Source of the DNA: Straminergon stramineum
Lineage: Eukaryota > Streptophyta > Bryopsida > Hypnales > Calliergonaceae
Direction of reading: 5' to 3'
Length of the DNA: 64,000 nucleotides
Assembly: GCA_963920665.1 (NCBI GenBank)
Contig: OY987267.1
Span: forward strand, 1,922,001 to 1,986,000
Below are positions 1,711 to 64,000 of this stretch, piece after piece. Numbering within the stretch: position 1 is the first letter of the stretch; each line of letters begins with the position of its first letter. The translations under genes were made by a program, and so were the position numbers. Below the pieces are notes generated by a model that worked only from the letters and a program-made list of their open reading frames with translations, ran no database searches and was not told the DNA's origin.

Positions 1711-6476
<4,766 letters not shown>

Positions 6477-42995: not shown

Positions 42996-43850
42996 CCCAT
43001 ACGCAAGGAATTTCTTTTGTTCCGTGGATGATAAGAACTTCTAATATACGACATAAATGCAATTGTCCATCTTTGAAAATTGAGTCCCAATTCCCAAAAG
43101 AGAGATCTTACTAAGTCCTCATACCGGAAATGAGTATTTTTGTGAGGGGAAAGGCAAGTACATCACATCACAGAGTTCTATTGGAGATGATTTTCATACT
43201 CACTAGTCCATCCGTTAAAGGTTAAGAGCAACCTCGTGTGCCGTTGCAATTGCAAACATAAATATAACAACCATTTCAATCTTGCTCATGATTTCGGATC
43301 CTTCAGTTTCCATGTGCCATTGCATTCTCCTAAGCCTTAAATGAAGTACTTCACATTCTGTGGTCATTCACTCATTCATAGGAGCCTCTGAGTTCTACAT
43401 GTTTTTATTACATATGGTTGGGAATTTCTAATTCAAATTTTCTACTCCTATTGAAGTGTAGAAGCCAATATCGCAATTGGATATAATAATTACACCAAAA
43501 ATAGATACAAAAACAAGAAAAATTTAAGGATAATTAGTATTACTGTATTTATAAGTTGTACACACTAATAGAGTAGTGACCCAATCTTATAAATGAACTT
43601 CTACTTCAATTGTACTTCCATGAACTTTGTTAAGATCTCCACGTCTATACTTGTAGAAGTCCACACTAAAGACATTGAACAGAACTTTGTAATTCTAACA
43701 CTATCATGCTTTCATACTAAAGTAGATACTACACAAAACTCATCTATAGGCTATTTGCCTATGAACTTAAGCTAGAAAAATTCAACACACCAAAATTATG
43801 CAAAAGCATTACATTACCACTTCACTACCTCTAAATCTATATTTATAAAG
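42996..43850. other. AT-rich spacer 3' of the hAT relic
   Basis: AT-rich DNA without recognisable features between minisatellite A and the end of the hAT-derived frame. A terminal inverted repeat of the hAT element would be expected around here, but I could not identify one. Confidence 0.4.
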
Positions 43851-46800: not shown

Positions 46801-47130
46801 AGTCTCATCTATAACATTAAATTCTGGAACCTCCTCATGCATTTGTTCAAAGCTCATTTCCTTCGGAACAACCCCACGACAAGTCCTAAACTTTTGCAAT
46901 ACTACCCATGGGGTTTTCTTACATCGCTCCGATGCAGTCCTGCCGCCAAATCCAAAGTGACAAAATGCTTGCTTTTGTACAAATACGGAGGTCCACCCAC
47001 AGAGAACACATGTTCGTGTGTTTCCCGCAAATTGACGGTCAATGTCTACAACCAACCAAGGGTCCCACTCCTTCGTGGCTCTCCTTGTATCATTAATGCT
47101 AGTCCTCCTCCCCTCACCCCGACTAGCCAT
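43851..47130 (-). pseudogene. decayed hAT-family transposase gene
   Basis: hAT transposases cut and paste DNA transposons. One frame can be followed from ATG 47130 to a TAA at 43851. The N-terminus has a BED-type zinc-finger-like C-x2-C with a downstream His and Cys. A DUF659-type part follows: PPSYNALRTRMIE, ICSDGWSDTNSRPLLNLMLV, NIVQLCTDNAAVMMGTLKAL and GCAAHILDLLLEDW. Near 45,250 comes the hAT dimerisation block CSASSCERNWSMYSFVHNKV. The tail is acidic and disordered. The frame is broken by TGA at 46051 and 45964, a frameshift near 45,660 in a GGTT repeat, TAG at 44958, TGA at 44820 and TAG at 44244. It is upstream-linked to minisatellite B like its neighbours. Almost certainly inactive. 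Confidence 0.88.
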
Positions 47131-47316
47131 ATTGTTCCTCGCCTATGAGTTCTTCAAACAATATTATCATATGAATCAAAGCCTTGATTTAGAAAAAAGA
47201 ATGGCAAAGCCACTTGCTTTGAACGGTCTTTTAAACCACGCAAACCAAGTGGTTGCCCTCCAAAGATCCAAACATCCGCAAGAAGCCTCTTTCAAAGATT
47301 CAAGCCAAGAGTTCAT

Positions 47317-47361
47317 CCTTGAAGCAAGGTGAAAACCACAGTCCGGGCCTTCAACTTTATA
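47317..47361 (-). promoter_or_regulatory. core promoter-like region of the hAT relic
   Basis: On the minus strand TATAAAG (47361-47355) lies between minisatellite B and the hAT start. A 13-bp inverted repeat CCTTGCTTCAAGG (47329-47317) follows. It occupies the place of the TATA and CCACTTGAAGTGG-like elements of the other modules, but its spacing (about 29 bp) is shorter, so homology is uncertain. Confidence 0.35.
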
Positions 47362-47414
47362 CTGCCATCCTGCTAGCACCGCAAGTTGTCCCCTGAGAGC
47401 CAGAATGGGTGCAC

Positions 47415-47658
47415 GAAATGGGCGACCTTGTAACAGGCACACTTGCCCTGTGGGCGACTACGGGTCGACGGTTTGCACTAGGAGCGCGCATGCAGATCAT
47501 AGGGCGACTGCGGGTCCAAGGGGGGCGACTTCGAGTCGAAAAAGAGGCGACTGCGGGTAAGGGTGGCGAGTGCGGGTGGAAGGGGGGGCGACTGCGGGTA
47601 GAAGGGGGCGACCGCGGGTCTCAAGAGGCGACTTCGGGTACTTGAAGGGCAACCGCGC
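47415..47658 (-). repeat. GC-rich minisatellite B, upstream of the hAT relic
   Basis: About ten units of GGCGACTGCGGGT type on the plus strand (ACCCGCAGTCGCC when read with the hAT gene), separated by purine-rich linkers of variable length. The array ends at the right in GGCGACTTCGGGTACTTGAA. It starts about 285 bp before the hAT start codon. Confidence 0.88.
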
Positions 47659-48537
47659 TTACACTTTAGGATCCAAGGCCATTTTTGTTATCTTGTTAGC
47701 GTTCCATCGATAAGTTTCTAGATGAAAGTCATCCTAGTTTAGATAGAGATTTTATTAAACCCTAAACGCTATCCAAGGGTTTGATGTGGTATTTATAGAT
47801 ACTTCAAAAAAAGATTTTTGGGAGTATAGTCATAGACTTAAAGAATGCAATTTTTTTTTAAACAACCACATGAAGGGAAACTCATTTCAAATCCATTCCA
47901 ACAAACTTAAGAAAAAATAAATAGAATTAGCTTGTACTCAAATGTGGAAAAAATTAAGAACTTTCTCTTTCTAATTAAAAAGAAAAATGGGGGACAATAT
48001 TGGTTGATCAAACCATATACATGGAATCCACAACTCAAAATGTATAACTTCCATTTTTCTATCAATTCCAAAAGTATTCTTTTGAGTACCTTTTTATGAT
48101 GTTTTTTCCCAAATTATAAATCTCAAGAAGAGTCCATACATTCACGAGGTGAAGGGCATGGGAATGTTGTCATTTACAATATGTTCAAACCATATGTTAA
48201 AATACAGAAAAATGCAACCATATAAACTTATATTGAAACTCTCATGGATGATGCAGCTTAAATTTATTGAGGGTTCTTTGTGTAGACTCAAAGTTACTAG
48301 AATTCTTTTTTTTTTTAAAACACTACACAAATTTAACAAGAAATTAACATTCACATAACTTGAAATCATCAAAATTTGTCAAAAATTCAAATGTTTGGAT
48401 CCAAATGCAATCACATTTTCATACACAAAAAATAAAAATAAACATTCTTGTATTTCAGCAAAAATAAGGACAAAGCCTTTTTCTTCATATATCTTGGAAG
48501 AAGTATATAGTCATAAAAGAAACAAGAGCCACCTAAT
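47659..48537. other. AT-rich spacer
   Basis: AT-rich DNA between minisatellite B and the 3' end of the next minus-strand gene. A telo-box-like AAACCCTAAACG occurs near 47,758. No gene seen. Confidence 0.5.
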
Positions 48538-50097
48538 TTATACTCCATCCATTTCCCCTTGTTCTTCCCTTTTCTTCTTTTCCAATTCTATTTGGGCTCT
48601 TGCCACTCTCTCTTCCCTCTTCAAAAGAGTCAGGTCATGGTTCCACATCTTATTTTGGATCCACCACTTCTTGAACAATGACATGAACTTGATCTGTGCC
48701 TTTGGCCATGACATCTTTTCCTCCAACTTCTGTTCCAATCTTTTCATAGAAGCTAACTTCATCTTCAACTTTTCTATTTCCGTAGTGGATGACAAATCTT
48801 CAACATCCACAGACAATGAATCTGATTGCAACGACCGGTCAATAGGATCAGCATCCTTCATCTCCTTCAAGCGGTTCAATGTCGATCTTGCCTTTTCCAC
48901 ACCTCCTTTTTCAATGGCAAGGTTGTTTTCTTCCATCCTACATTTTCCCATTATTGTTTGAAGTCGTTCATCCATAACAGGATTGACATTTGAACTGGAA
49001 CCTCCATCTTCTCCCTTATTGAACTTGAGGTAAAATTGTTCCAGTTGTTCCATTTCTCTTTGTTGGGTTGCCAAACGAGTTTGTCCAGCTTGAATTAGTT
49101 CTTTGAGGGTGCCCACATCCTCAACCTAAATCTCTTGTGCGCTTCGCTTCTCGATGATCTCACACTCCCTTTCTTTTTCTTCAAGATCCTTTAAAAGCAT
49201 CTCCAACTCCACTTTATAGGATTCTTTCGTCCGCCGTTTATTGTCTTCTCCAAATACACCTTGATGTTCTTGTTCCATTTCACGCAATCCTTCCATGGAA
49301 GGCAAATTCATCAAGGTCAAAGGAATCTCTTCTTCGGCTTCACTCTCCCCATCCAACCTATTTTCATTAATTTCTTGCAAGCGAGCTTGCACGTAATGGA
49401 ACACTTCATCATCTTCGGGACGACGGACCCCTATCGGTTCCACAGACATAAAAGGTTCTCCATCCGTTGGTGTGGTCCGTTGCATGTTGCCTTCTTCGGA
49501 TACCACCAATGCTAAGTTTTCTTCCATTAATGTATCTTCTATCCTGTCCCTAGATTCAGGCAATGGCTCTTCATCGGAGTCCGATTCTCTAGTTGATGTT
49601 GACCAAACATAATCCTCATTTGCCACTCCTTCTATAATGTTCTTTTTGGGCCCTAGCCCATCCCGAGGATTATTTGAAGGACCCGCTCTTGGAATGTCTT
49701 TTGTATCTGGAAGCGTGACATTCTTGGATGTCTTGAAGGTCATCCAATCTACCGTTTTCCCCAATTGTAACTCTGCATATATCATTTGGCATATGCCCAT
49801 TGAGACTTCGCTCCGTGGAATTTTTCGCTTTCCGTACAATGTTGGGTACACTTCAATACATCTCTGGACAAATGCATCATCCTTGCAGTAATGAAGATTT
49901 GCTTGGTTTTGCTTCACATGGTGAATGTGTCGATGGTAAGGGAATAGCTTGTCGATATGGCACCAATCCACAAATAACTTGCAAGTCGTCAAGGTCCAAT
50001 CAGAATTTACATGACGCCATCCCCGATATGCCTTAGCCATTGGGTCAAGAAGGGTGCGTCGTTGCCTACTATGGCGATCTCCTTTCTTCTTCGTCAT
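48538..50097 (-). pseudogene. WCHI-domain protein with coiled-coil tail, one in-frame stop (copy 1)
   Basis: A single frame runs from ATG 50097 to TAA 48538 (519 codons), broken only by a TAG at 49128-49126. Residues ~10-140 form a conserved domain shared with the genes at 57.3 and 62.5 kb: AYRGW (23-27), TTCKLFVDWCHIDKLFP (W44 C45 H46 I47), QNQANLHYCKD, then RCIEVYPTLY and finally YAELQLGKTVDW. An acidic, Ser-rich linker follows, with EEEIPLTLMNLPSMEGL. After the stop comes a Lys/Glu-rich predicted coiled coil to the end. I know no named family with this domain. The single stop could be a recent mutation or be read through. Low GC and no introns, with minisatellite C ~200 bp upstream. Confidence 0.7.
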
Positions 50098-50228
50098 CTT
50101 GTCGTGTCACTCTAGCGTAAAGAGAACTAGACTTTTGTTGATAATATAACCGAAGAAATGAATTCTTAAACGTGGAAGCCACAACACGTGTAGATGCCCA
50201 AACTTCCAATCCACGAACCGGCAGTCAG

Positions 50229-50314
50229 ACGCTTCAAGGCGGATGAAAGGCGCGGTGCAACGAAGGAAGTGACAACTTGGGAATCCAGTATCCCCTTAAA
50301 TACCTGAAGTCGCC
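50229..50314 (-). promoter_or_regulatory. conserved core promoter-like cassette (copy 1 gene)
   Basis: Read on the minus strand: GGCGACTTCAGGTATTTAAG at 50314-50295 forms an inverted last repeat unit running into a TATA-like TATTTAAG. About 56 bp later TTTCATCCGCCTTGAAGCGT (around 50248-50229) matches the downstream element of the kinase and copy 2 modules. The same order and spacing recur at 54.7, 57.0 and 62.6 kb. Confidence 0.6.
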
Positions 50315-50745
50315 TAGGGCGCGTGCGGGAAGAGGGTGCATGTGGGTCTTGGGCGACTATGGGTTTGGGTCCCACTGTTCAGAAACTGCCATTGAGGAAA
50401 AATTAGAGTTTCTGGAAGGAGACCTCGGGTGCAAGGTGACCGCAGGTATAGGGGGGCGTTTGCATGTAGGGCGACCACAGGTCTTTTCCTAGGCGACCTC
50501 GGGTAATGGGGCGACCGCGGGTACAGGGGGTGGCTGCATATAGGGCGACCACAGGTCATTTCCTAGGTGACCGCGGGTAATGGGGCGACCGTGGGTACAG
50601 GGGGCGGCTGTATATAGGGCGACCACAGGTCATTTCCTAGGCGACCGTGAGTAATGGGGCGACCACAGGTCTCAGATTCCAAAAGGTCTTCCCCAATTCA
50701 TGACGATGGGAGCGGCTGCGTATGGGGCGACCTCGGGTCAAGGGC
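50315..50745 (-). repeat. GC-rich minisatellite C, upstream of WCHI copy 1
   Basis: GGCGACCGCGGGT-type units with a higher-order period of ~76 bp between about 50,470 and 50,680 (GGCGACCACAGGTC, TTTCCTAGG, then TAATGGGGCGACC). A GGGCGCGTGCGGGA unit lies nearest the gene. Orientation relative to the gene is as in the other modules. Confidence 0.88.
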
Positions 50746-50916
50746 GCCAAAAAACATGAGTTTGAGTTTCCGCCCTAACAAATTGGAGGGAAGGTGTTCA
50801 AACTTTTCAAGTACCGCTCCCCCCTTTTCTAAGGATTAACTCCAGAAAATCCTAAGACAGAGGCATTCAATACGAAGTGATCAAAAGTTAATTAAGTAAT
50901 AAAGAAAGAGAATTGG

Positions 50917-51845
50917 TTGACGAAGTGGAGATTTGGAAAAGCCCTTCTTCCTAACATTTTATTTCTTCTTCATCCATCCATGTGGTCATGTAAAATTCAA
51001 CGTAACCATTTCCTACTTTAATTTTTGGAGGGAGTACATTAAAAGGAGACCTTTCCTTGTGGGGGGAAACGATGTACAAATAAAATACTAAAACTGTGGG
51101 ATGCATGAAGAGAAATCTTTTTATCTACATCAAAAGTGGTTTTAAAAAATGGAAACTTGGGAAAGCTCTTCTCTTTGACATTTTTTTTTCCACATGCTCA
51201 TGTCAAATTCAACATGACCATTTTCTATTTTAATTTTTGGAGGGAGTACATTTGGAGGAGACCTTCTCTTTGGGGGAAATGAATAAATGATATACAAAAA
51301 AAATACTAACACCATGAGATGCATGAAGAAAAAATCTTTTGATCTCCATAAGAAGTGGTTTTTAAAAATGGAGCTTGGGGAAGCTCTTTTCCTTCACAAT
51401 TTTTTTTCTTCGTGCTCATGTAAAATTCAATATGACCATTTCCTATTTTAATTTTTAGAGGGAGTACATTAAAAGGAGACCTTCTCTTTGGGGGAAATGA
51501 ATAAATGATGTACAAAAAAAATACTAACACCGTGAGATGCATGAAGAAAAAATCTTTTGATCTCCATAAGAAGTGGTTTTTAAAAATGGAGGCTTGGGGA
51601 AGCTCTTCTCCTTCACAATTTTTTTTTCTTCATGCTCATGTAAAATTCAACATGACCATTTCCTATTTTAATTTTTAGAGGGAGTACATTTGGAGGAGAC
51701 ATTCCCTTTGGGGGGAAACGATGTACAAATAAAATATTAACACCATGAGATGCATGAAGAAAAAATCTTTTGATCTACATAGGAAGTGGTTTTTAAAAAT
51801 GGAGACTTGGGGAAGCCCTTCTCCTCGTCATTTCATTTTCCATCT
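50917..51845. repeat. 212-220-bp tandem repeat, about 4.3 copies
   Basis: GGGAGTACATT recurs at 51031, 51242, 51461 and 51681 within a long shared unit that also contains TTCAACATGACCATTTCCTA, GATGCATGAAGA and AAGTGGTTTTTAAAAATGG. Copies differ by point changes and small indels. The repeated minus-strand frames they create (51142-51542) are by-products. Confidence 0.9.
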
Positions 51846-52384
51846 TCAAACATAGGAATTTCAATAGAGTCCTCCTCTTGATACATCAAGGGGATTTAAA
51901 TGACATTTGAAGGGGTGAATGAATATTGAATTTATTGAAGATTAAAAAGTTCAGAAATGACACCTTCAATGGTTTATATCTTACAAGTGCAAGGTTTAGG
52001 AGTTCAAACTTTTTTATGACATATAATGAAAAGCAAATCACATGTGTTTATCATTTTATCCACCCTAAAAAATAGAAGTACATTACTTTTGGGGTGGCAC
52101 ACATGGAGAAGGTCCATGGTTTTTCTATAGGGTTTAGGGTATAGGGTTTAGGGTATAGGTTTAGGGTTTAGAGTTTGGAAAACCCTCTTCAATTTATCTA
52201 ATTAGTCTTACTATAATTTTGTATTTATAGACTGATTTTGTAGTATTAACTAGCTACCAACATTGAAGGACAGGTCAGTTATAGTCCATGAAAGACGCAA
52301 TTAAGTCTGACTTCATTAGTGTTGGAGATGGCTCACATCTTCTGCTACGTTGGTTTTTGGATTGGCGTGACTTTAAGATAGAGG
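51846..52384. other. AT-rich spacer with interstitial telomere motif
   Basis: Mostly AT-rich. At 52130-52170 there are about five TTTAGGG / TATAGGG units, a short degenerate interstitial telomeric repeat. No gene. Confidence 0.5.
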
Positions 52385-52965
52385 CGATTGCTAGTGGGGG
52401 GCGAGTTTAGGTCCTGGGCGACCGCGGGTGGGGTGACTTCAGGTCCTGGTGGTTTCGAGGCCAATTTGGTGGATTGGGGGGCGACTGCGGGTGGGGGGCA
52501 AGTTCAGGTCCTGGGTGACCGTGGGTAGGGGCGACTTCAGGTCCTGGTGGTTTTGAGCCCAATTTGGTGGATTGGGGGCGACCACGGGTGGGAGCGCGGT
52601 CTTATGTTTTGGTGGTTTCGAGCCCAATTTGGTGGATGGGGGGGGGCGACCACGGGTGGGGGCGCGGTCTTCTGTTTTGGTGGTTTCCAGACTAATGTGG
52701 TGGATGGGGGGGGGCGATTGCGGGTGGGGGGCGACTTCAGGTCTTGGGCAACCGCGGGTGAGGGCGACTTCAAGTCCTGGTGGTTTCGGGCCCAATTTCG
52801 TGGATTGGGGGGCGACCGCGGGTGGGGGCGCTGTCTTCTGTTTTGGTGGTTTCGAGCCTAATTTGGTGGATGGGGGGGCGACCACGGGTAGGGGGCGACT
52901 TCAGGTCCTGGTGGTTTTGAGCCCAATTTCGTGGATTGGGGGGCGACCACGAGTGGGGGAGTGCC
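52385..52965 (-). repeat. GC-rich minisatellite D (higher-order array, no gene attached)
   Basis: GGCGACCGCGGGTGGGGG units are embedded in a higher-order repeat with the phrase CAATTTGGTGGATTGGGGG at 52468, 52565, 52630, 52699, 52799, 52864 and 52930, so spacings alternate near 66 and 98 bp. It is the longest array here. Orientation predicts a leftward gene, but only tandem repeats and AT-rich DNA lie there. Overlapping proline-rich frames on both strands are by-products of the repeat. Confidence 0.9.
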
Positions 52966-53040
52966 TTCCAATCCAAAGAAGTTTTAATAAGTATAACGAG
53001 TTCAACTTTTAACATCCAAGAACAAGTCACTTCATTAGGA

Positions 53041-53189
53041 CCTTGGGGTCTTCAAGGCATCTTCGGGTGATGCATGGAAGGTATTGGCTTCCTAGAAGTC
53101 ATTGTTCTTGTAGAGGTCTCGGGTTCGATCTCCAATGAGATCAATTTGGTTTGGTTCTTGTAGCCAACCGATAAAAAAAAAAAAAAAAA
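53041..53189 (+). mobile_element. tRNA-derived SINE-like element with poly-A tail
   Basis: An A-box-like TGGCTTCCTAGAAG (53085-53098) is followed by a strong B box GGTTCGATCTCC (53122-53133), and the segment ends in 17 A (53173-53189). This is the layout of a short tRNA-derived SINE on the plus strand. TTCTTGTAG occurs twice inside. No clear target-site duplication. Confidence 0.55.
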
Positions 53190-53259
53190 GACGTCAAGCT
53201 AGTTCCCTATGGTATGTGGGAGGGAAGGTGATTTGATTCTCAAGGTCTAGGGGATGGTC

Positions 53260-53375
53260 CATGAGAGTTATAAGAAATCAGTATTGAATTTTGGACGGAA
53301 ATGTATGTGGTGCAACCTTGCACCTCATACATCTCCATTCTAAATTCAATACTGACCGTCTCAACCCTCATAATA
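53260..53375. repeat. long imperfect hairpin (foldback), possible miRNA-like precursor
   Basis: CAGTATTGAATTTTGGACGG (from 53279) pairs with the stretch ending CTAAATTCAATACTG at 53354. Over ~37 positions per arm about 31 match, with almost no loop around CAACCTTG. Weaker pairing extends both ways (ATGAGAGTT with AACCCTCAT). It could be a small foldback transposon or a plant miRNA/siRNA precursor. Confidence 0.55.
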
Positions 53376-54447
53376 CATCTCCGAAATCTTGGGAATCAAA
53401 TGATGTTTCCTGCTCACCTATCGGAGTGACCAAACTTGACGTTTTGTCTCTTTGGAGAGAGATTATTTTTTGTATACAAAAGTTGAAGTAAACCTTGGAT
53501 AGCTTTTACAAGAACATATTGAATGTCCTCCATAGAATACTTAGCCAAAGAAATTGTACATTGTATAAGGATTTGCATGTGACGGTTCTTCATCTTTAAA
53601 CGATGGGGTGGCTAATTTTGAGTCCATAAATGATAGAAACTCTCTATATAGGATAGAAGAGCATCTCATCATCTTGTAAATTTTGTAGTGTAAGAAGGGG
53701 TGGTCCTCCTTGGAAAGTTTACTTTCGAAGACCGCATCTATAATTTGTAACTTAACAATTTACAACGTCTAAGAAGGATGATTTCGAAGGTGTCCCACTT
53801 GTCCATTTAGAAATTTCTTGTATCTTGTGGGTGACCAATTTTGAAGGATTGGCATGCAAGAAAAAGAAATGATAGCATTCAAACACCCTTGATGGTTTGA
53901 ACAATGTCTTCATCAAGAATAACAATCTTTTGACTTGATGTGCATATGCTTCATTTGTTGTTCATTTCAATGTGCTCTGCAACATGTATGTTTGCATTTA
54001 TGACCTCTTCCACACCAAAAGGGTTTAGGGTTGTGTAAAAAAGCCAAATTCATGTTCACTGTAGAGCAAACTTGAAGAAATTAGAAAAAGACTTTGGACA
54101 CTTCTAAAGTAACCTCTATAATATTATTATGCAATGGTAGAATGTAAGTATTTCAAGTTCTCCCTTTTTGTTTCAATAGAAGTCAATCATGTCCCGCACT
54201 TTTATATTTTTGATTCCCTTTTTTTGTTTTGGCCCATTCCTTTTTTTTCTTTGTGAACATTGTAGACATATATTTCGAACCATAAAGAAAGAACTCAAAA
54301 TCTAATTCCACATTCTAGACCATATCATAGTGGTCTTATGATTTTATTTGAAAGCAAGCGAAATAGAAGTGGGAAGTTGTAATGCCAATGTTTCTACCCC
54401 ATATGAAGGTTTCTTTTAGCTATTATTTAGGATGGTCCATCCTTTTT
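53376..54447. other. AT-rich spacer
   Basis: No gene recognised. One telomere-like GGGTTTAGGG occurs near 54,020. Otherwise ordinary AT-rich DNA up to minisatellite E. Confidence 0.5.
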
Positions 54448-54722
54448 GGACCCGCGGTCACCCAAGACCAACGGTTGCCCCCACACGAACGGTCGCCTCC
54501 ATTCGCGAGGACCTCTGGAACCTGTAGTTGCCCCCTCCCGCGGTCGCCCCAACCCACAGTCGCCCCTCCCGCGGTCGCCCCAACCCACAGTCGCCCCTCC
54601 CGCAGTCGCCTCCATACCCGCGGTTGCCCCATACCCGTGGTCGCCCGTTTTGCATACGCCAGACCCGCACGCGCCCCAAGGCAACCTCGGGTACTTAAGT
54701 AGTCACCCAGACCCGCGGTCGC
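54448..54722 (+). repeat. GC-rich minisatellite E, upstream of the kinase
   Basis: About a dozen CCCGCGGTCGCC / CCCACAGTCGCC units, then GACCCGCACGCGCCCC, an inverted unit GGCAACCTCGGGTACTTAAG and one last GACCCGCGGTCGCC. The units read in the same sense relative to the kinase as the arrays of the minus-strand genes do relative to theirs. Confidence 0.9.
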
Positions 54723-54775
54723 CATTCTTGGTCTTGTGCATTGGCTTTCATCCACCTTGAAGTGGCTGAATATGT
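54680..54775 (+). promoter_or_regulatory. conserved core promoter-like cassette (kinase module)
   Basis: GGCAACCTCGGGTACTTAAG (54680-54699) ends in a TATA-like TTAAG. 58 bp later GGCTTTCATCCACCTTGAAG (54743-54762) runs into TGGCTGA. The ~100-bp region aligns with 56,926-57,025, upstream of the next gene, and with the minus strand at 50,314-50,215. The kinase ATG lies ~105 bp downstream. Confidence 0.65.
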
Positions 54776-54869
54776 GCTCGTGGGCCAAGGTGATTTCAGA
54801 AGGGGAAGTTTTTGCCCATTTTTCTCTCCAAGTTCAAGTCAAGAACGCCTCGTTTTTCAAAAGAGGACC

Positions 54870-56459
54870 ATGTCTACTTCAAAGGAAGGAAGTAGTAAAG
54901 GTTGGATATCGGCTTGGGACAAGGACCTTGATAATCCTGCAGCATTTGTTGTAGATATAACTACCAAGGAGGTAATTGGGGGTGCCAGACCATCCAAGAC
55001 AAAGAAGTCCAAGACAGCACACGATAAGGACCCTACCTATCCTCCAGCATGATATACGACCTATGCGCATGAGGCTTGTCTCCAATGGTATGAGGAAAAA
55101 AGTGTACAATATTTGGAAAGGAAATACTTGAGAATTAAAGAGGTAGGCATCCAATCCTTGAAGGATGAGTTGGAGGAATTTATTACAAGGAAATGCAAGG
55201 AATCTTCGGATTATGCAGATGTGGATGAAGTGTATTTCAACCAATGGCAAACGTGGATTGGCAATTGCCTACAAACTGGTATATTCAACACCAAGAAGTT
55301 GATGCTTAAATTGCGACCTATAGTGCCTGGATTTGGAGAAACGGATAGGGCCCAAGAGTTTCGTGAGAAGATGGATTGGTGGCAAATTGTAGCAAAAAGA
55401 TTGTCAAGGTCTGAAGCTAGGGGTATGGGGTGGTAGACGAATGCATTGAAGGCTGCATTTACAAGAGATAGTGGTTCATGTATCATGTGGGTCTACTCAG
55501 AGGCCAAGGTGGTCCCACTTACTGGATTTGACCGTCAAGGAGGATATGCAAAGGTGCGCAAGGTACGCATTGAAGGGATGTCCACGATCCCAACGCATGT
55601 ACATTTTGTGGGGAAATTGTCAAAGCAAAGGAACAAACGCGATGCAAGGGTGGAATGGTCAGTGGAGGCTTTGGTATGCCTGTTGAATCATCCGTCCATT
55701 ATTAAATTCCTAGTTGTCCATGACCAAACAATGGAAGCATACACTTTGTGGTGGAATGGTGGTAATTTCAAAGAGTTGCTTCATTTGAATGAGAAGGTGG
55801 TGCCGCATGCGGAATGGCATGAAATCAAGTTGGTCAAGCAACTTACAGGCCAACAACAAAAAGAAATTAGCCTCTTTCGAAGACACAAGGTGAAGTTGGC
55901 GTGGGCCCTAGTTTATGTGACAAGTCTCGTGCACAATGCTGGGGTGCTGCACAATGACTTGTCACCTGTGAACATATTGTTGCATTATCCCCCCTTCTCG
56001 GACGAAGAGATCAACATTGGGATTTGTGATTGGGGAATTGCAAGTCGTATTCAAGAAGGAGCTCCCTCGCATTTTGGATATGAAAAACAGGAAAAACTTG
56101 ATGCTGAGAGGATGGGCCGTTGGTCGGCTGCTCCAAAGTTGTTCTATTTGTTTGGGCCAAAGGGTTCAGATACGAGTTTAGATGTGATGAAAGCGACTTG
56201 CAAATATTCGGTGAAGTCCGACTCTTATTCCATTGGAAAGTTGACCCAACGCATGAACATAGAACACATGGTTGAATACGACAAGGACTTATTTAGAAAT
56301 CATGAGTCATCAAGGTACTTTGCCATGAAGTTACGTGAACTAGCTGATGTTGATGTTAACAAAAGACCAACATGTACGCAAGTGGTGGACCTCCTCATGG
56401 GTAAACCATGGTTCATGAAACCACCCGAATTTGTCTTTCGGGACTCTGTCCTCTCATAG
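54870..56459 (+). pseudogene. atypical protein kinase-like gene with two in-frame stops
   Basis: One frame runs from ATG 54870 (GGACCATGT context) to TAG 56457-56459, 529 codons, interrupted by TGA at 55050 and TAG at 55434. The first ~185 residues are hydrophilic with a predicted helical part (YLERKYLRIKEVGIQSLKDE). The kinase-like domain covers about 220-500. Its landmarks are a candidate ATP-binding lysine K249 (FVGKLSKQ) and the catalytic loop HNDLSPVN at 361-368, with Asn for Arg and Ser for Lys compared with HRDLKPEN but retaining D363 and N368. A DWG (387-389) replaces DFG. Near the end DVNKRPTCTQVVDLL matches kinase subdomain XI. The metal- and base-catalysis residues are kept, so the domain might once have been active. 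The start is preferred over upstream non-ATG codons. Intronless. Confidence 0.75.
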
Positions 56460-56717
56460 GATTTGATGTAATAGTTTTCTAGCGGGAATAGTAACGTTGG
56501 CCACCTTTTGTGCATCTCATTTTGGAAAAGCAATGCAAGTGTATAAACTATTTTTAATGTGAAGTGCATGTTTGGACCCAAAATATTGAGTATTGTACAT
56601 ACACATCACCTACTTGCATGCATTTGGGTTTGAATATGAATTCTTTGCATGGTTCATTTGGGGGTAAGTCAATCTAATTGTTAAGGCAATCTAATTTCAC
56701 TATTCAGTGAAGGTATG

Positions 56718-56925
56718 TGGCGTCGCGGTCGGGGGTTTGGGACCCACGGTCGCCCCAGACCCGCACGCGCCCCCAGTCCCACAGTCGCCCCCAGACCCAC
56801 AGTCGCCATCACCCGCGGTCGCTGGCGGTGGTCCTGGACCCGCGGTCGCCTTCCCGACCAGCACGCACCCCACCCCCCACCCCTTGGACCCACACGCGCC
56901 CCATCTAGAGCCGCACTCACCCTGA
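56718..56925 (+). repeat. GC-rich minisatellite F, upstream of WCHI copy 2
   Basis: CCCGCGGTCGCC, CCCACAGTCGCC and two GACCCGCACGCGCCCC-type units with C-rich linkers. The array begins ~260 bp after the kinase stop codon and ends just before the core cassette of the next gene. Confidence 0.88.
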
Positions 56926-57025
56926 GGCAACTACGGGTACAAAATCAGACCCTAAACCCGTAGTCTCCCATCTTTCCCTTTTGTGCCTTGTCTTTTATCC
57001 ACTTGGAAGTGGCTAATTGCAGGCT
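56926..57025 (+). promoter_or_regulatory. conserved core promoter-like cassette (copy 2 gene)
   Basis: GGCAACTACGGGTACAAAAT (56926-56945) followed by CCACTTGGAAGTGG (56999-57012) preceded by TGTCTTTTAT. Spacing between the two (~59 bp) equals that of the kinase cassette and the intervening bases align partly. The gene's ATG is at 57267. Confidence 0.6.
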
Positions 57026-57266
57026 TGAGAGGGGAGGTGGGTGTTGTGAGGAGGATATTCTATGTCTCCTCATGTCACTTTCATCCATTGATTGTAAATC
57101 ACACCGAATTGTTTGAAACTTGATTGTGATTGTAAATGTTCATGTTGATGTATTTGTAAATGTGAATTACCACGAGGTAATAGATTTAAGTTTGGACAAC
57201 CGCGGTTTTAGGCTTGGTATATTTGGCATAGTATCCGAGTAGAATTGATCGTATAGATTGAGCACT

Positions 57267-58727
57267 ATGGAGAATGAGCCCCCACCATTGACGCCTGCCA
57301 CAATCAAACGCCTTACACGACAAGAGATGAAGCTCATCCGTGACAAGGGTCGGAAACGGTCCGGTAAAATTCACAAGAAGCGTGTGGCCATTTTGATCCA
57401 TCCAAAGATTAAGGCATTTAAAGGTTGGAGAAATGAACCTGAGCCTTGGAGTTACAAAACCGTTTGCAAATACGTGGATTGGTGCCACATTAGCAAATTA
57501 TTTCCCTTGTGTCGGCACAAAGAACATCTGAAGCAAAACAAAGTAAATCTTGCATACTCGAAGGACGAGGGCTTCATACTTAGATGTTGTGAGGTGTGGA
57601 AGCACTTGTATTTGGAGGACTCAACTTACCGAAACGACAATTTTTGTTTCTTTCTTGTGAGAATGGTGTATGCTGAATATGTGTTGAAGAAGGAGGTGGA
57701 TTGGTCAACATTGAAGGAGGTCCCTATTGCGATCATTCCGGAGACTACAAAAATTTTACCACCAGATGAACCTATGGATGTAAAGAAGATGTTATCCAAG
57801 GTGAAGCGTGGGAAGTCATTTGTTCGTGATGAAAGCGTGGTTTGGTCAGAGACTTCTAGCTCTGATCAACACACCCATGAATACGATGGACATTCTTTCC
57901 ACAATGATGAGGAGGAGGTTGCCATACAAGAATCTAGGCCGGCTGTGGATGTGGGAGTCGACCAAAGTGGACAATCAGCTCAAGAGCCCATCATAGTATA
58001 AGATACGGATGAAGGCATGGATGATGGGGTGGCTAGGAGAGTGGACCCCGTTTTGTGAGAGGGTGATAGGAGTGGTGAAGGAAGCGATTCAGAAAATGAA
58101 GAGGCAATGTTGCTTGCCAAAATAGAAAGTGCAAAATTAGCATTGTGTGCAAAGAACGAGCAATTGAAAACTTTGAAGGAGCAAGAAATGAATCCCACTT
58201 TCGTAGAGGTGTTGAAGCAACGGTTGAAGGCCATAACGAACGTCATCAAAGAGAATGACCAGGGCTTCCATTCCTTCAAAAGAAATCGCAATTTTTATTT
58301 GAAGGAAATGAAGAGTGGGAAGGTGCATAAAATGGACCATTATTTGATATGGGAATCAAAACTCGAAACCCTTGTCCGCAAACGTCAGCAGGCACAAAAT
58401 GAAAGGCAAAGCCTAGAACTTCAAATAATGGAGAAGAAGAAAGAATATTACGAGGCCGCTGTCCAGCACGTTCCAAAAGTAGAGCTTTTGGCTTCTTCCT
58501 CAACATATGGTAGTGTTGCTGGAGAAGTAGCATTGCTTGAGAAGTTGGTGAAGTTCCATGAGCAAAGATTACCATTGATGGTATCGGAGTTGGAAGCTTT
58601 GAGGGCAGAAAGTCGTTCTTTTTCGGATTGGTATAAGTGGAATAGAGCTAGCATAGGGAAGTCTGATGCAGAATTACAACAAATGGGTCCGGAGCCCATT
58701 TTGAAGGACTACCTCAACACAAAATAA
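57267..58727 (+). pseudogene. WCHI-domain protein with coiled-coil tail, two in-frame stops (copy 2)
   Basis: One frame from ATG 57267 to TAA 58725-58727 is interrupted by TAA at 57999 and TGA at 58056. The conserved domain lies at about residues 25-150: basic lead-in RKRSGKIHKKR, FKGW (51-54), VDWCHISKLFPLCRH (W72 C73 H74 I75), NKVNLAYSKDEGF, RCCEVWKHLY, and YAEYVLKKEVDWSTLK (V144 D145 W146). An acidic linker (NDEEEVAIQESRPA) is followed, after the stops, by ~200 residues of predicted coiled coil beginning EEAMLLAKIESAKLAL. Layout parallels copy 1. A GTG or internal start after the stops is conceivable but unsupported. Function unknown; the Trp/Cys/His pattern could suit a structural or nucleic-acid-binding fold, but that is a guess. 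Confidence 0.7.
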
Positions 58728-60061
58728 AATACCTAGGAATACAATGAGGATAAATACTTTCACCATGATTATTTTGTATTTTGCCTATCCTGGTGTTATA
58801 AAGAAATGCAATGTTTTGAGATAAAACAATGTATATGGTGTCTTGAAGCAATGTCTATACTAGAATAGTTAAATTGGTGTGGGCACACTAGTGGTGTGCA
58901 TGGAAGGGAGAAAATGCCACACCATTTTGGGATCTTACAACTTTTCTATATGGATGAATATGTCTCTCTCATGTTTTGGGAGAAGGTGATGGTATGATGA
59001 ATGGAATGGGATTCTTGCACATAATTACAATCGAATAGGAACATGGGATTGATGGGAAGTTCTTGATTCTTGACTGTAAAAGTTGACATAGTATTTTCAC
59101 TATTTTGTGAGAATGTCGTTGTGAAATCTACAGTACAACTTGTATTAATGATTTTCATATGAATAGTGGAGAACGAAAAACCGATTATGCCCCAAATACC
59201 ATATTAATCGAGGAAATTTATTGGGCTTATTTGTCTCAGGTGATTTGCTGCATTGTTCCTCCTTGTATATAGGAGTTTTTAGAATTCTAGCTTTAGTGTA
59301 ATTTGAAGAAAATTACAATGGATATTGAGGAATTAGGTAGTTTTGATATGTAAGTTGGCCTACTCATGTTTTTTATGAATCAAAATTTTGACCTCCAAGG
59401 ATAGGGTGAACCATTTGAAGGTATGGTAATGTGAAGTCAACAAGTCAACATCCACGAAAAGGGGCATGTTGTATTTGAACCCCTTTTATTCCTTCTTTGG
59501 CTAAGTATCTTGAAAGCTTAGAGGAAAAGCTTCCTATAATTAGAACCTCACGATTTTAAAGAATATGAAAGGAAATATCCAATTGGATAATGATGCTCCA
59601 CTCTAGTGAGTAGTGACCTAGTTTTCTTCTCAATGCAAGTGAAATTAATTTGAAAAGTTAAACTTTAAGAGCTTTGTTGATTTGATTCATACAAACTATT
59701 TTGGGAAGAACTGGAAAAGATCATTCTCGATATGATTTCAGAAATTGGTGCTTTGGTAGAGAGGAAAAAAAGGTAGTATTAAATAAAAATCAATGCCATA
59801 TGGAATTGCCGTACATAGGTGTGCTAGGAAGTTGTAGAAGTGGAATGAAAGAAGCAAACCCTAAACCACACCATCGTACTTGCCAAAACAACTAGAAACA
59901 TAGTGTAACTAAAACCTAACCCTTACTTGTCATCTATTATGATGGGAGGTAAGGCTAAATTGCATGATTCCTACGAATGTCTAGTCAATTACATTTGGGT
60001 TGTTTTGAGAGCCACTTCCTTCACCTTCTTCGTAGGTCGATGCTTCCCCAACCCCTAGCTT
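58728..60061. other. AT-rich spacer between convergent genes
   Basis: AT-rich DNA between the 3' ends of two convergent modules. Frames such as 59701-59895 (+) show no motif. No terminal repeats recognised. Confidence 0.5.
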
Positions 60062-62471
60062 TCACTTTACACGGGTTCGTGAAGCTGGTCCATCTGCCTT
60101 CAAAATTGATTGCAACACATTGGAGTCCTGTAGAGCTTGGAGGGTCCTTGTTGTTTGCGGAGAATGTGCTTCCAACAAGTAGTCAAGTGCTTGACTTTGG
60201 TAATATGGTCCGTACATAGAGTCCAGGTAAGCCATACTAGTCAAGTCTTCTAGGGAGGCACTATCATCTTGATTAGCCATCCTTTCTCCTTCTAAATTCC
60301 AATGGTGTCGTTGCGGATGAGGACCCCACTTGAAGGTTGAGGAGGTCTTGTCCCAATATCCACCAAGGCATTGGAAGAAGAATGCCCTCCTCCCTTCATT
60401 TTGTGGCCCCTTTCCCATGAGCCTCGGTGCAACTCTAGCAATTTTGTTTGGGTCTGTTTCCCAATTCAATTGCGAGCTAGCAGGTCCTTTTTCTTGATCA
60501 TGTTGTCCTTCTCGCCAATTCCAAACCAAATCTCGGCCCCACAAGGTTGTGTCAGCTGTAGTATCACGTGTGTGTTCCCAAGAAGGAGGCATGTAGGTTG
60601 TCAAGTTAAACATGGTATACAAGTGATCATGGAATGGTGCTGAACAAATCACACAACGTTGTCTAATCAAGAATTGTGTGATGAGACATTGGGTGGTATA
60701 CATGTGCACAAGATCCTAGTGCCCAACCCCCTTCGGGGCCAAATTGTTCAAGACATATGGGGCATTTGATATGGTCCAAAACAAAAGGTGCAGGCTTGGG
60801 CCACAATAGCATTTGTTTCTTCTCTTCTATGTGGCTAGACATTTGATTTTGGTGGTCCCAACCATTTTTGCTCCAATCTATGACCTCCTTTTGTGGCAAT
60901 TCCACCATGTACATGTTATTGGGAAACATGTCCTTCAACAATGCCCATGATGTCAGTCCATTCTCACGTTTAGGAGCATTTGCAACAAAGTTTCTAGAAA
61001 CTTTCTCTAGCTCCTTCGCAACTTGTTGGGATCTATCCACAGAGACAATGCAGGCGACCTTCCAATGGTAGTATGTGGTAGTCAACTCAACCAACTTTCT
61101 TCGAAGCATCTTATTTTCTTCTTGAAGTCCATGGTCTTTCTCCAATTGAATAATTGATGGAACCACAGGAAATGAAAGAGAGTCTTGGGTCCCATTGAGT
61201 TCAATTGTGTCATTGGTAGTATATCTTGTAACAATAGTAGGAAGTGTATTCGGAATGATGGGGGAGTGTCTAGTGCGCTTGGCAAGAGGAGAACATTGAA
61301 GGATATGGTTGGTAAGGTCTCCCACAACCTTGTCCACATTTTGGAGGTTCTACTCAACAAAGGCGTCATCCATATCTAACAAAGTGAAAGTGTCAGGGTC
61401 TTTCTCACGGAGGCGTTGCAGTTCTGTAGTTTGTTGAGAGATGAGTGTACTTTTTTGTTCACACTCACATCGCAATTTCCTCATTTCATTCTGTAGTGAA
61501 GAAATTTCAACATCTTTGGTCTTGAGGAGGTCCAGAGCTTTTGCCAAAATCATAATGTCGTGGCTTGAGCCCATTGTTGATGGAGAAATGGGAACACGGT
61601 TAGTTTCTTCCATAGCCGTGTCCTCATCGGGCCCAAAGTCAAAGATGTCATTTGTGCGCTGTGTTGGCAGCGATGGGTTAGGAACTATAGTTGGAATCAA
61701 TATGGGTCCCACTCGTGTTGTTGAACGCCGTACTCTAGATGGTTGCCTTGGTCGTTGTCTCGTGGATGTCGCGGGTCCTTCTACAACTTCATTTTGAACC
61801 TCATTGGGGCAAATAGATTGCTCCACAATTCGTATGACCCTATGGACGCGCGTACCATCAGAGTCATCATCTTCTTCAGACTCCTCAGTGTCAACCTCAG
61901 TGGCAGGGGTTTGCGTTTTGTATGCACTTCGAATAGGACCGAGTCCCCCTTTAGGAAAGGCTAGAACTCCTTTTGGGATGAAACCACTCTCTAGACGAGT
62001 GACATACGTACTTCCCTTGATTGTGCTCCAATCAACCTCTTTGTTTAGAGCGACCTCAGCATATGCTCCTCTAGCAAGGAAGAGGAGGACCTCATTCCTA
62101 TCTACAAAGGCGGTTTTGTAAAGGACTTGCCACAATTCAATGCATCTTTGAAGGAATGCTGGATTCTCACAGTACTTCAAGTTGGCCTTATTGGTGTGCC
62201 AATTATAATGATGACTCCATAAAGGAAAGAACTTGCCGATGTGGCACCACTCGATGTAGTCTTCGCAGGTTTGTATTGTCCAAGGCTCTGGTTCTTCATT
62301 CCAACCCTTAAAAGCAAGGTGGGCTTCACTATTGAGCACGTGCAATCGCTTTCGATGAATAGTGCCCCTACGCTTGCGATGTTTGTCTTTGGCAGCCTTC
62401 CGTAATGCCCTGGCGGTCTGTGCAGCAGCGGAGATAGGCAATGCCCTAGCATTGTTAACTCCAGTGGCCAT
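60062..62471 (-). pseudogene. WCHI-domain / coiled-coil / RING-H2 protein, one stop and one frameshift (copy 3)
   Basis: ATG 62471 opens a frame with the shared domain at about 20-150: RKRRGTIHRKRLHVL, FKGW (54-57), IEWCHIGKFFP (W75 C76 H77 I78), NKANLKYCENPAFLQRCIEL and YAEVALNKEVDWSTIK. A Thr/Arg-rich linker (QRPRQPSRVRRSTTR) and a predicted coiled coil follow (LLKTKDVEISSLQNEM). A TAG at 61352-61350 interrupts the frame, which stays open afterwards with more helical sequence. Then comes KCPICLEQF (Cys ~570 and 573) and CAHVYHP. A one-base shift near 60,690-60,700 is needed to continue into QCLITQ, RCVIC and the tail to TAA 60062. Across the shift the ligands read C-x2-C, C-x-H-x2-H-x2-C, C-x2-C, a RING-H2 finger typical of E3 ubiquitin ligases. 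Copies 1 and 2 lack this finger. Confidence 0.72.
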
Positions 62472-62589
62472 CAATGATTGTCGTGTCTAAGGCTCAAAAA
62501 ACTTGTTTTGCAGTTTAGGTGGTCCACATCTAGTAAGGTAAGAAGGGTGGATGAATGTAATAAATAGTAAATAGTCAAGGTTCACGCAT

Positions 62590-62667
62590 GTAGCCACTAA
62601 AGGATACAAGACAAGAAGCCTCAATGAAAGGTGCCCAAAAGGTCTTGGGCGAGTGGATAAATAGGTG
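62590..62667 (-). promoter_or_regulatory. conserved core promoter-like cassette (copy 3 gene)
   Basis: On the minus strand CACCTATTTATCC (62667-62655) supplies a TATA-like box. About 54 bp later TATCCTTTAGTGGCTAC (62606-62590), preceded by TTGTCTTG, corresponds to the TATCCACTTGGAAGTGGCTA element of copy 2. The downstream element is less symmetric here. Confidence 0.5.
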
Positions 62668-63008
62668 GGGCGAGCGCAGGTGAGAGTTGGTCATGGGGCG
62701 CGTGCGGGTGGGCGACCACCGGTTGAACCCGCGGTCTCCAAGGGGCGCGCACGGATCTTGGGGAGCGACTATGGGTCTGGTAGGGCGCATTCGGATCCGA
62801 GGAGGCGACTGCGGGTCTAGGGGCGCGTGCGGGTCCTGGGAGGGGCGACTTCGGGTACAAGGGCGCGTGCGGGTCTTTTGGGGGGCGACTGCGGGTCTTT
62901 GGGGGCACGTGCAGGTCCCTTGGGAGGCGACTATGGGTCTTTGGGGGCGCGTGCGGGTCCCTTGGGAGGCGACTGCGGGTCTTTTGGGGCAACCGCGGGT
63001 AATTGTGG
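62668..63008 (-). repeat. GC-rich minisatellite G, upstream of WCHI copy 3
   Basis: About fourteen alternating units of GGCGACTGCGGGTC and GGGGCGCGTGCGGGTC on the plus strand, in a loose higher-order pattern with TTTGGGGG / CCCTTGGGAG linkers. Orientation relative to the gene matches all other modules. Confidence 0.9.
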
Positions 63009-63073
63009 GGCGTTACTTCTCTTTGGGTTCTCACTTCGTGTCTTTGCTTCGCAACTTGCCACGTACTCGACAC

Positions 63074-63172
63074 CCGTGGTCGCCCACTAGCCTGAACTCG
63101 AAGTCACCCTACCCGTAGTTGCCCAAACCCGAGGTCGCCCAAACCCAAGGTCGCCCACACCCGCATGCGCCC
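63074..63172 (+). repeat. GC-rich minisatellite H, head-to-head with G
   Basis: Five or so units read in the opposite sense to array G (CCCGTGGTCGCCC, CCCGAAGTCACCC-like, CCCGAGGTCGCCC) and end in ACCCGCATGCGCCCC. A ~65-bp non-repetitive spacer separates G from H. By the rule seen elsewhere a rightward gene should follow, but none is recognisable up to 64,000. Confidence 0.8.
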
Positions 63173-64000
63173 CTTTAGGATGCTACGTGGAAGACACGTG
63201 TCTGCCACATGGCATCCAAGTGGCCTCATGGGTAGGGTGAAATTTTTTTTAAAAGTCAAAGGTAAGTTTGACTCTATTAGACAGACAAGAGGGTCTACTT
63301 GACGTGTTGGACGTCGTGTTTGTCGAGTTGTCGAACTGTCCGCCGGAACAACCATGTTCCTTTTAGATCACAAGGAAAATGCTTAACATGTCATTTATGT
63401 CCAGATGTAAGTAGCACAATCTACAAAAAAAAGGATCCAGTAAGCTGTATAGTCAAACGATTGCAAACGACAATCTAGGTTTTATGTTTTACAAAGTTGA
63501 GGTGTAAGTTGCACTTCCTGTCCTTCCTAGTATTGTAGTACCTCCACCCACAAGCTAAAAATTCTACTGCTATTCACCTGTATATTATTCATATTGGATT
63601 TGAGGAAGTATTTTATGTATCAGCCTTTACTCCACACCAATGAGTTCTCAGGCTTGCTATATGTGGTCAACATAATTCGGTAGGCTAATGTAGAACTTTG
63701 TGTTATTGTAATCTTCCAAAAGAGGGTTATAGCCATCAAGGGTTCGACAGATGTGACCTGAGCAACCATCCCACCATTTGAGAAGAGAAATACATAAGCA
63801 ACTTTTGACAGTCACACACTTATGAGCAAGCATGTAGGAACTTTGCATCAAACAAACCATAGCATTAATTTCCGCACCCTTAGCTCTAAGAATCTCCTTC
63901 AAGAACAAGTTGTTATTTGGTCCTTTATATCAGGACACACTAACCAAGCAATCACATACTGCACTTGTATATAGTATAATGACCTAGTGAATGATGCTCA
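63173..64000. other. right-hand end of the window, no secure gene
   Basis: Begins with ACGTGG / CACGTG-type motifs (63,183-63,200). A minus frame 63908-63657 has fairly natural amino-acid composition (83 codons, with AKGAEINAMVCLMQSSYM), and could be an exon or a transposon relic. It lacks a recognised domain or partner. The remainder is AT-rich. Confidence 0.35.

What the first reader, a model, noticed from the sequence alone, without database searches (positions are those of the whole stretch)
47317..63172. A shared promoter-like cassette drives five unrelated-looking genes
Seen: each of five intronless genes (hAT relic, WCHI copies 1-3, kinase) has a GC-rich minisatellite immediately upstream, always in the same orientation relative to the gene, whichever strand the gene is on. 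In four of them the last repeat is followed by a TATA-like box, and 54-59 bp further by a conserved element like TATCCACTTGAAGTGGCT. In three the unit before the TATA box is an inverted copy (GGCAACCTCGGGTAC-like). Inference: this is a common, dispersed regulatory module that travels with or recruits genes. Unlike ordinary minisatellites, position, polarity and spacing are constrained.
Basis: partly seen in the sequence, partly recalled or inferred. Interest (0 to 1): 0.88.

Follow-up and report, generated by a model that had tools for sequence, protein, structure and literature searches.

The report
Giant five-gene jumping element, shared promoters
The five genes and their GC-rich repeat arrays are parts of one 20.7-kb jumping element of the hAT type, whose left end occurs hundreds of times in this plant (likely moss) genome, and the array and TATA box before each gene likely act as a common promoter that may also be bound by the element's own transposase.

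Summary
The arrays, their polarity and the TATA/element cassette are real, but they are not a free module that meets unrelated genes. All five genes (hAT transposase, WCHI1, kinase, WCHI2, WCHI3-RING) and all seven array clusters of the region lie inside one transposon, window 42646-63356. The gene order recurs at other loci. Ends are inverted repeats CAGGGTTGTTC/CATGGTTGTTC. Of 8 copies with both ends read, 6 have perfect 8-bp target duplications, the window copy 7/8, one 5/8; one insertion has a paralogous empty site. The genome has 480 left ends (reversed control 0). The first 100 listed motif sites all fall in element intervals, 1.1% of that stretch. Gene-less 3.2-4.0-kb derivatives keep and enlarge the arrays, so arrays are not promoters only. 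A second gene family here (kinase and WCHI-RING, head to head) and a homologous gene in another record also have array plus TATA, with a different unit. I read it as a giant multigene hAT element whose subterminal arrays likely double as upstream regulatory sequence. Promoter activity and transposase binding are untested. TATA-to-element spacing holds for four genes of the window copy, not for hAT, nor for the kinase in two other copies.

The parts
42646..63356 (+). whole giant hAT-type element (window copy, 20.7 kb)
   Evidence: common blastn borders with copies at other loci, ends read
42638..42645 (.). target-site duplication, left (ttcttttt; 7 of 8 with right)
   Evidence: read by eye
63357..63364 (.). 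target-site duplication, right (ttcctttt)
   Evidence: read by eye
42646..42664 (+). left terminal inverted repeat (CAGGGTTGTTCTGTCGAAC type; first base T here)
63338..63356 (-). right terminal inverted repeat (CATGGTTGTTCCGGCGGAC type)
42856..42967 (+). left subterminal array, no gene start beside it
43854..47130 (-). hAT transposase gene, in several frame pieces here; DUF659 and hAT dimerisation regions
   Evidence: open over 987 codons in another copy
47453..47660 (+). array upstream of hAT gene
47353..47366 (-). TATA-like box of hAT gene
48541..50097 (-). WCHI1 gene, one in-frame stop
50302..50738 (+). array upstream of WCHI1
50295..50314 (-). inverted unit plus TATA-like box of WCHI1
50227..50249 (-). 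palindromic downstream element of WCHI1
50986..51825 (+). AT-rich 218-bp tandem repeat, parts kept in gene-less derivatives
52383..52960 (+). central array, no gene start beside it
54450..54723 (-). array upstream of kinase
54680..54699 (+). inverted unit plus TATA-like box of kinase
54745..54767 (+). palindromic downstream element of kinase
54870..56459 (+). protein kinase gene, two in-frame stops
56742..56968 (-). array upstream of WCHI2
56926..56945 (+). inverted unit plus TATA-like box of WCHI2
56992..57014 (+). palindromic downstream element of WCHI2
57267..58727 (+). WCHI2 gene, broken here
59984..62471 (-). WCHI3 gene with RING-like region, one stop and a frame change here
62592..62610 (-). 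downstream element of WCHI3, partial match
62655..62667 (-). TATA-like box of WCHI3
62669..63012 (+). array upstream of WCHI3
63072..63171 (-). right subterminal array, inverted relative to the left one

Best explanation
The five genes and their arrays are one 20.7-kb hAT-superfamily DNA transposon with terminal inverted repeats and 8-bp target duplications, and the GC-rich array plus TATA box in front of each gene likely works as the element's common promoter, with its repeat units predicted to be bound by the element's transposase. Shown: the element, its ends, its copies, its gene order, its gene-less derivatives; a transposase frame open over the 987 codons fetched; WCHI3 frames open in some copies; and, in a second family, intact kinase and WCHI-RING frames. 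Inferred: the transposase cuts and joins at the TIRs and binds the subterminal arrays as other hAT transposases bind subterminal repeats. Also inferred: copies of those arrays were placed or kept before each gene, so that transposase level and DNA methylation of the CpG-rich units would set expression of the whole gene set. The kinase and the RING-type WCHI proteins would then act on host factors or on the transposase; their targets are unknown.
For: Same order array-hAT-array-WCHI1-arrays-kinase-array-WCHI2-WCHI3-array at other loci, complete in copy C, in part in B, D and E, about 91-97% identical in long blocks with common ends. TIRs and TSDs: 6 of 8 copies with both ends read have 8/8 (C, F, G, H, I, J), window 7/8, B 5/8. 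Paralogous empty site for copy C in L042. 480 left ends, reversed control 0. Of the first 56 WCHI rows (of 111 matches), 21 lie 12-26 kb inside one of the 100 listed left ends (of 480), 20 of them in the window's orientation; shifted control mean 0.4, maximum 4. Transposase frame in L036 with DUF659 and hAT dimerisation domains; whole-sequence match to Hermes chains, E 0.0004-0.0009, no single stretch significant alone. Arrays of inverted polarity about 210 and 185-200 bp from the two ends in the window copy and the five gene-less copies. Mean dN/dS among five copies each: WCHI1 0.37, WCHI3 0.49, WCHI2 0.51, kinase 0.70; transposase 0.46-0.87 in 21 pairs of seven other copies. 22 of the first 56 WCHI rows have no stop inside the match. 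Second family with intact kinase and WCHI-RING frames over one array and two TATATAAAG boxes.
Against: No transcript or binding data. dN/dS of the two hAT pieces among copies A-E averages about 1 or more (0.98, 1.29). Copy B's target duplication fails (5/8). The downstream element is absent at the right spacing in hAT and not significant in L001 or L042, and kinase spacing differs in copies C and E. Gene-less copies show that arrays persist without genes. No copy was read in which all five genes are open. The right-end count could not be obtained (tool busy). The BED zinc finger expected to bind the repeats has no Pfam match here.
Confidence: 0.78

Rival explanations
1. The arrays are transposition sites only: subterminal repeats needed in cis by the transposase. 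Their position before genes is a by-product of copies spreading inside the element, and the TATA boxes alone drive the genes.
For: Gene-less derivatives F-J keep 36 to 63 plus-strand units each, with inverted polarity near the right end; Hermes transposase binds subterminal repeats by its BED domains (passages of PMC10368747).
Against: All five genes have an array on the same side and in the same main polarity, 0 units in the 700 bp after the start; a second family and L001 with a different unit have the array right before the TATA as well.
Confidence: 0.3
2. The arrays are neutral minisatellites that grow by slippage or gene conversion in a CpG-rich element and have no function.
For: Unit number varies between copies and the last units are replaced or lost in some (WCHI2 in copy C); arrays are largest in gene-less copies.
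Against: Polarity and position are kept in all 19 gene copies examined; unit sequences differ between families while the place before the TATA box is kept.
Confidence: 0.17
3. One reading: an independent regulatory module dispersed through the genome that recruits unrelated genes.
For: Kinase and WCHI genes, not known to be related, share the cassette.
Against: The genes recur together in fixed order between common ends; 100 of the 100 listed motif sites lie in element intervals.
Confidence: 0.04
4. The window is a nest of separate transposons, one per gene, that happened to pile up.
For: Nesting does occur in this family: L039 has a second left end inside the first copy.
Against: Same order and spacing at independent loci with one pair of TIRs and target duplications outside the whole set.
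Confidence: 0.02

Closest known systems
hAT superfamily autonomous transposons (Ac, Hermes, Tol2)
   Same: CAGGG-type TIR (recalled as typical), 8-bp target duplication, hAT dimerisation domain, subterminal repeats near both ends, internally deleted and gene-less derivatives
   Different: 20.7 kb with four further genes; Tol1 and Tol2 are 4.4 and 4.7 kb (passage of PMC10175614); repeat arrays also stand before every gene
Pack-TYPE / Pack-hAT elements of plants
   Same: hAT ends around non-transposase genes
   Different: Pack-TYPEs are defined as non-autonomous carriers of captured gene fragments (passages of PMC8903248); here the transposase is on board and the gene set is fixed between copies
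DNA transposons that encode a TET/JBP dioxygenase in fungi (PMC12730594, title and abstract start in listing)
   Same: an accessory enzyme gene beside a transposase gene
   Different: another enzyme and host group; paper not read further
20.5-kb CACTA transposon of soybean (PMC2613891, title and abstract start in listing)
   Same: large plant TIR element of nearly the same length
   Different: another superfamily; its gene content was not read here
Teratorn, Starships, Mavericks (giant multigene eukaryotic elements)
   Same: many genes on one mobile unit
   Different: Teratorn is a piggyBac-herpesvirus fusion of 180 kb (PMC10175614, listing and passages); Starships and Mavericks recalled: tyrosine recombinase, and DNA polymerase with capsid genes; here a hAT transposase
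Spm/En and Ac regulation by own transposase protein (recalled, not from a call)
   Same: transposase sites in subterminal repeats that overlap a promoter
   Different: there one promoter; here five, each with its own array

Membership tests
hAT superfamily | terminal inverted repeats | tested here: met
   15 of 19 bp in copy F; like ends in the copies read
hAT superfamily | 8-bp target-site duplication | tested here: met
   8/8 in 6 of 8 copies with both ends read, 7/8 and 5/8 in the others; borders of G and I read by eye; paralogous empty site for C
hAT superfamily | transposase with catalytic core and C-terminal dimerisation domain | tested here: met
   PF04937 and PF05699 above cut-off in window pieces and in three long open stretches; Hermes chains E 0.0004-0.0009 for the whole sequence. 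Assignment of the catalytic D, D, E is by eye from that weak alignment
hAT superfamily | N-terminal BED zinc finger | tested here: inconclusive
   no Pfam match in 46051-47130; a Cys/His-rich stretch is present by eye
hAT superfamily | mobility of the element | not testable with these tools
   one genome only; synonymous divergence between copies 0.01-0.10
Pack-TYPE elements | no transposase gene; captured gene fragments | tested here: not met
   transposase gene inside copies A-E and in 7 of 10 sampled left ends; parent genes elsewhere were not searched for
Maverick/Teratorn-like virus-derived elements | viral replication or capsid genes | tested here: inconclusive
   the ten element ORFs given to Pfam show none; shorter ORFs were not scanned; WCHI domain has no BFVD match
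RING E3 ubiquitin ligases (WCHI3) | RING zinc finger | tested here: inconclusive
eukaryotic protein kinases | kinase domain with conserved lysine, HxD and DxG | tested here: met
   PF00069 above cut-off; HND and DxG invariant, lysine nearly invariant in A3
common core promoter of the five genes | transcription start downstream of the TATA box | not testable with these tools
   no RNA data

The most novel reading that the evidence does not exclude
The element runs an element-wide regulon: one repeat unit is at once the transposase-binding site at both ends and the operator in front of all five genes, so transposase dose and CpG methylation switch transposition and an on-board kinase and ubiquitin-ligase programme together. 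It is a plant transposon with virus-like gene control, and the same logic with a different repeat recurs in a second WCHI-kinase family and in another organism.
Probability: 0.3. Interest if true: 0.88.

Novelty: new variant of a known kind. Interest (0 to 1): 0.78.

Why it matters
Autonomous hAT transposons are recalled as a few kilobases with one gene. A hAT element of 20.7 kb with a recurrent five-gene set, hundreds of left ends and gene-less dependants would be a plant counterpart of the giant cargo elements of fungi and fish. It makes a question testable: why would a cut-and-paste element carry a kinase and RING-like proteins for the long term, as the dN/dS values and open frames suggest? 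It also warns annotators, since WCHI, kinase and transposase frames may be called as host gene families. The array would be a simple case to ask whether a transposase binding site can become a shared operator.

Tried and rejected
Viral contigs held no match to the doubled motif, WCHI or kinase. The genome-contig scan gave one relative, L001, in a bin labelled cyanobacterium, which I take as contamination by a plant. I first took the inverted repeats of L001 (816-910 / 4832-4906) as its TIRs. A hAT-like terminus GACAACCCTG lies just inside the right arm, but no left partner or target duplication was found, so L001's ends stay open. The palindromic element seen by eye in L001 is not significant. 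L001's genome gave no kinase match, which the tool says shows nothing without a positive control. WCHI N-terminal domain: good model (pLDDT 89), no Foldseek match at E 10 or better in PDB or BFVD; the full-length model matched RING folds only, weakly. My guess of a recombinase-type DNA-binding domain has no support. The ends of the second family (L042) were not found. Copy D is rearranged: its left target duplication matches the right flank of D0 in inverted position. Copy E's right end was not in the stretch fetched. Papers: the listings of searches showed no report of a giant multigene hAT element or of this gene set (20 of 155 listed in 61, 10 of 14 in 130). Only openly licensed PubMed Central papers are held, so this is no proof of absence; searches were on other points. 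One survey (passages of PMC6027215) found no hAT sequences in the moss Physcomitrella.
Full report
WHAT WAS GIVEN. The finding says that five unrelated intronless genes share an upstream GC-rich minisatellite, a TATA-like box and a conserved element, and proposes a dispersed regulatory module.

THE OBSERVATION. A scan of the 64-kb window for GGCGACYGCGGGT with up to 3 mismatches gives 95 matches, 92 of them in clusters at 42856-42967, 47453-47660, 50302-50738, 52383-53068, 54450-54723, 56742-57207 and 62669-63171, against 5.9 expected for the window from a first-order Markov model. Tandem Repeats Finder shows arrays at the same places. For all five genes the array is upstream and most units read on the strand opposite to the gene. 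Over 19 gene copies in 7 loci, 152 units are on the opposite strand, 26 on the same strand, and none lies in the first 700 bp after the start. Before the TATA-like boxes of kinase, WCHI1 and WCHI2 stands one inverted unit that runs into the box. The gap from that block to the CATCCACYTTGAAGTGGCT-like element is 45, 45 and 46 bases, and 44 for WCHI3. In alignments of 140-bp stretches, kinase-WCHI2 (score 45) and kinase-WCHI1 (35) were reached by 0 of 1000 shuffles, WCHI3-hAT by 7, WCHI2-WCHI3 by 8; the other six pairs among the five genes by 82 to 709, and the five pairs with L001 by 86 to 872. So the cassette is real for three or four genes; for hAT only array and TATA hold. Against strict spacing: in two other copies (C and E) the kinase gap is 16 bp shorter, and in copy C the WCHI2 inverted unit and box are replaced.

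WHAT THE GENES ARE. The minus-strand gene at 43854-47130 is a hAT transposase with DUF659 and dimerisation regions. The plus-strand gene at 54870 is a protein kinase. WCHI is a family without a Pfam domain in its N-terminal part. Full-length relatives of about 750-900 aa have a predicted coiled coil and a RING-like region; the RING score stays below the Pfam cut-off in the four WCHI-RING proteins tested (WCHI3, L001, P0012, L042), while precomputed annotation accepts it in several homologs. The genes of the window copy are broken. Close open relatives exist in public data (P0012, 98% over 23% of the query; P0015, 96% over 71%).

ONE ELEMENT, NOT FIVE LOCI. The window lies in a 326-Mb genome of 59 contigs. 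The motif occurs 5007 times exactly, the reversed control 6 times. Twenty 10-kb stretches, 17 around the first listed motif sites and 3 beside the window, showed the same order again: array, hAT (-), array, WCHI1 (-), arrays, kinase (+), array, WCHI2 (+), WCHI3 (-), array. Copy C shows all of it; B, D and E show parts, with some inserts and missing arrays. Blastn between loci gives common borders, window 42643-42647 and 63349-63359, at about 91-97% identity in long blocks and less in arrays and the tandem repeat. The borders carry CAGGGTTGTTCTGTCGAAC and, inverted, CATGGTTGTTCCGGCGGAC. Target duplications of 8 bp: C GCCTGACC, F AAAGGAGG, G GCATTAAC, H GAAATAAG, I GTTATCCA, J TTTATGAA, all 8/8; the window 7/8; B 5/8, a failure (G and I needed a border shift of a few bases by eye). 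Copy D's left flank matches the right flank of D0 8/8 but in an inverted arrangement; D2 and E have one end read. Copy C sits inside a WCHI gene of a second family, and L042 has that gene uninterrupted with the site once (GCCTGATC there): a paralogous empty site.

NUMBERS. The left terminal 26-mer occurs 480 times at up to 3 mismatches, reversed control 0. Of 10 left ends fetched (of 95 exact ones listed; all on the + strand), 7 run colinear with the full element through the transposase gene, 1 is an internal deletion (L034), and 2 are gene-less or nested (L035, L039); one search found no right end inside these 4.2-kb stretches. Of the first 56 WCHI rows (of 111 matches), 21 lie 12-26 kb inside one of the 100 listed left ends, 20 in the orientation of the window; randomly shifted ends give 0.4 on average, 4 at most. 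All of the first 100 listed motif sites, on the first 11.3 Mb of contig 1, lie in element intervals that make up 1.1% of it; for D0-D, D2 and E the interval is bounded in part by the fetched stretch.

GENE-LESS DERIVATIVES. Copies F, G, H, I and J are 3.2-4.0 kb, keep about 300 bp of the left end, parts of the AT-rich tandem repeat and about 550-630 bp of the right end, have no ATG-started ORF above 126 aa, and carry 36 to 63 plus-strand units, the first at 211-212 bp from the left end, plus 3 to 5 minus-strand units, most of them about 200-300 bp from the right end. Arrays therefore persist without genes and mirror each other at the ends, as subterminal repeats of hAT elements can. For Hermes, BED domains of the transposase bind subterminal repeats of the left end (passages read, PMC10368747).

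IS THE GENE SET MAINTAINED? Mean pairwise dN/dS between five copies each: WCHI1 0.37, WCHI3 0.49, WCHI2 0.51, kinase 0.70, hAT pieces 0.98 and 1.29. In seven further copies the transposase gives 0.46-0.87 in 21 pairs. Its frame is open over the 987 codons fetched in L036 and over 829 and 789 in L030 and L031, all cut by the fetched edge; against L036 the last two have one and two stops, and the other four have two to five. Copy C has a 740-aa WCHI3 frame; the longest WCHI2 frames seen are 375 and 381 aa. Of the first 56 WCHI rows, 22 have no stop inside the matched stretch. No copy was read with all five genes open. Values below 1 mix selection in the active lineage with neutral decay after insertion, so they suggest, and do not prove, constraint.

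A WIDER PATTERN. L042 has intact kinase (542 aa) and WCHI-RING (765 aa) frames head to head over one 21-bp minisatellite, with TATATAAAG boxes facing both ways. L001, from another record, has an intact 801-aa WCHI-RING gene behind a 21-bp minisatellite and TATATAAAA. The two arrays match each other (75% over 94 bp, E 2e-9), and the two L042 promoters match each other (0 of 500 shuffles). Against the window promoters the best counts are 20 (L042 WCHI with WCHI1) and 28 (L001 with WCHI2) of 500, the rest 56 to 460. So array plus TATA recurs with another unit; the downstream element does not recur detectably.

MECHANISM. I commit to this: the transposase moves the element by its TIRs (inferred from family), binds the subterminal units (predicted), and the same units before each gene are part of five like promoters (predicted), so that gene expression of the element would follow transposase level or methylation. 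What the kinase and WCHI proteins act on is unknown.

IDENTITY OF THE HOST. Plant by its aluminium-activated malate transporter gene; a moss by guess only, from genome size and the kinds of records with relatives. No call names it.

Noticed in passing
window 35761-36775 and 37298-38312: A perfect 1015-bp inverted repeat with a 522-bp spacer, either a very young palindrome or an assembly fold-back.
   Followed up: no
L042 1244-5631 (G000:C1:36000501-36007500): Second WCHI-kinase family: two intact divergent genes share one 21-bp minisatellite with a TATA box on each side; 94-96% like the flanks of copy C.
   Followed up: partly
L015:2326-4488 and L017:5037-5193: Copy C of the giant element has inserted into a WCHI gene of the second family, so one family breaks a gene of the other.
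   Followed up: yes
L001 (CADCWO010000051.1): A contig filed under a cyanobacterial bin carries an intact intronless WCHI-RING gene with an upstream array; likely contamination of the bin.
   Followed up: partly
L034: Natural internal deletion of the element joins window-equivalent 44973 to 49556.
   Followed up: no
G000:C1:11109501-11170000: Left end of copy D and right end of D0 share the same 8-bp flank in inverted position, a sign of rearrangement through an element.
   Followed up: no
window 52126-52176: Short run of TAGGGTT repeats, like plant telomere repeats, inside the element.
   Followed up: no
window 26339-28369: Single 676-aa open frame with flavodoxin, FAD and NAD domains, of a cytochrome P450 reductase type, without introns.
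   Followed up: no
WCHI N-terminal domain, L001:1945-2445: Confident mostly helical model (pLDDT 89) with no Foldseek match at E 10 or better in PDB or BFVD.
   Followed up: partly
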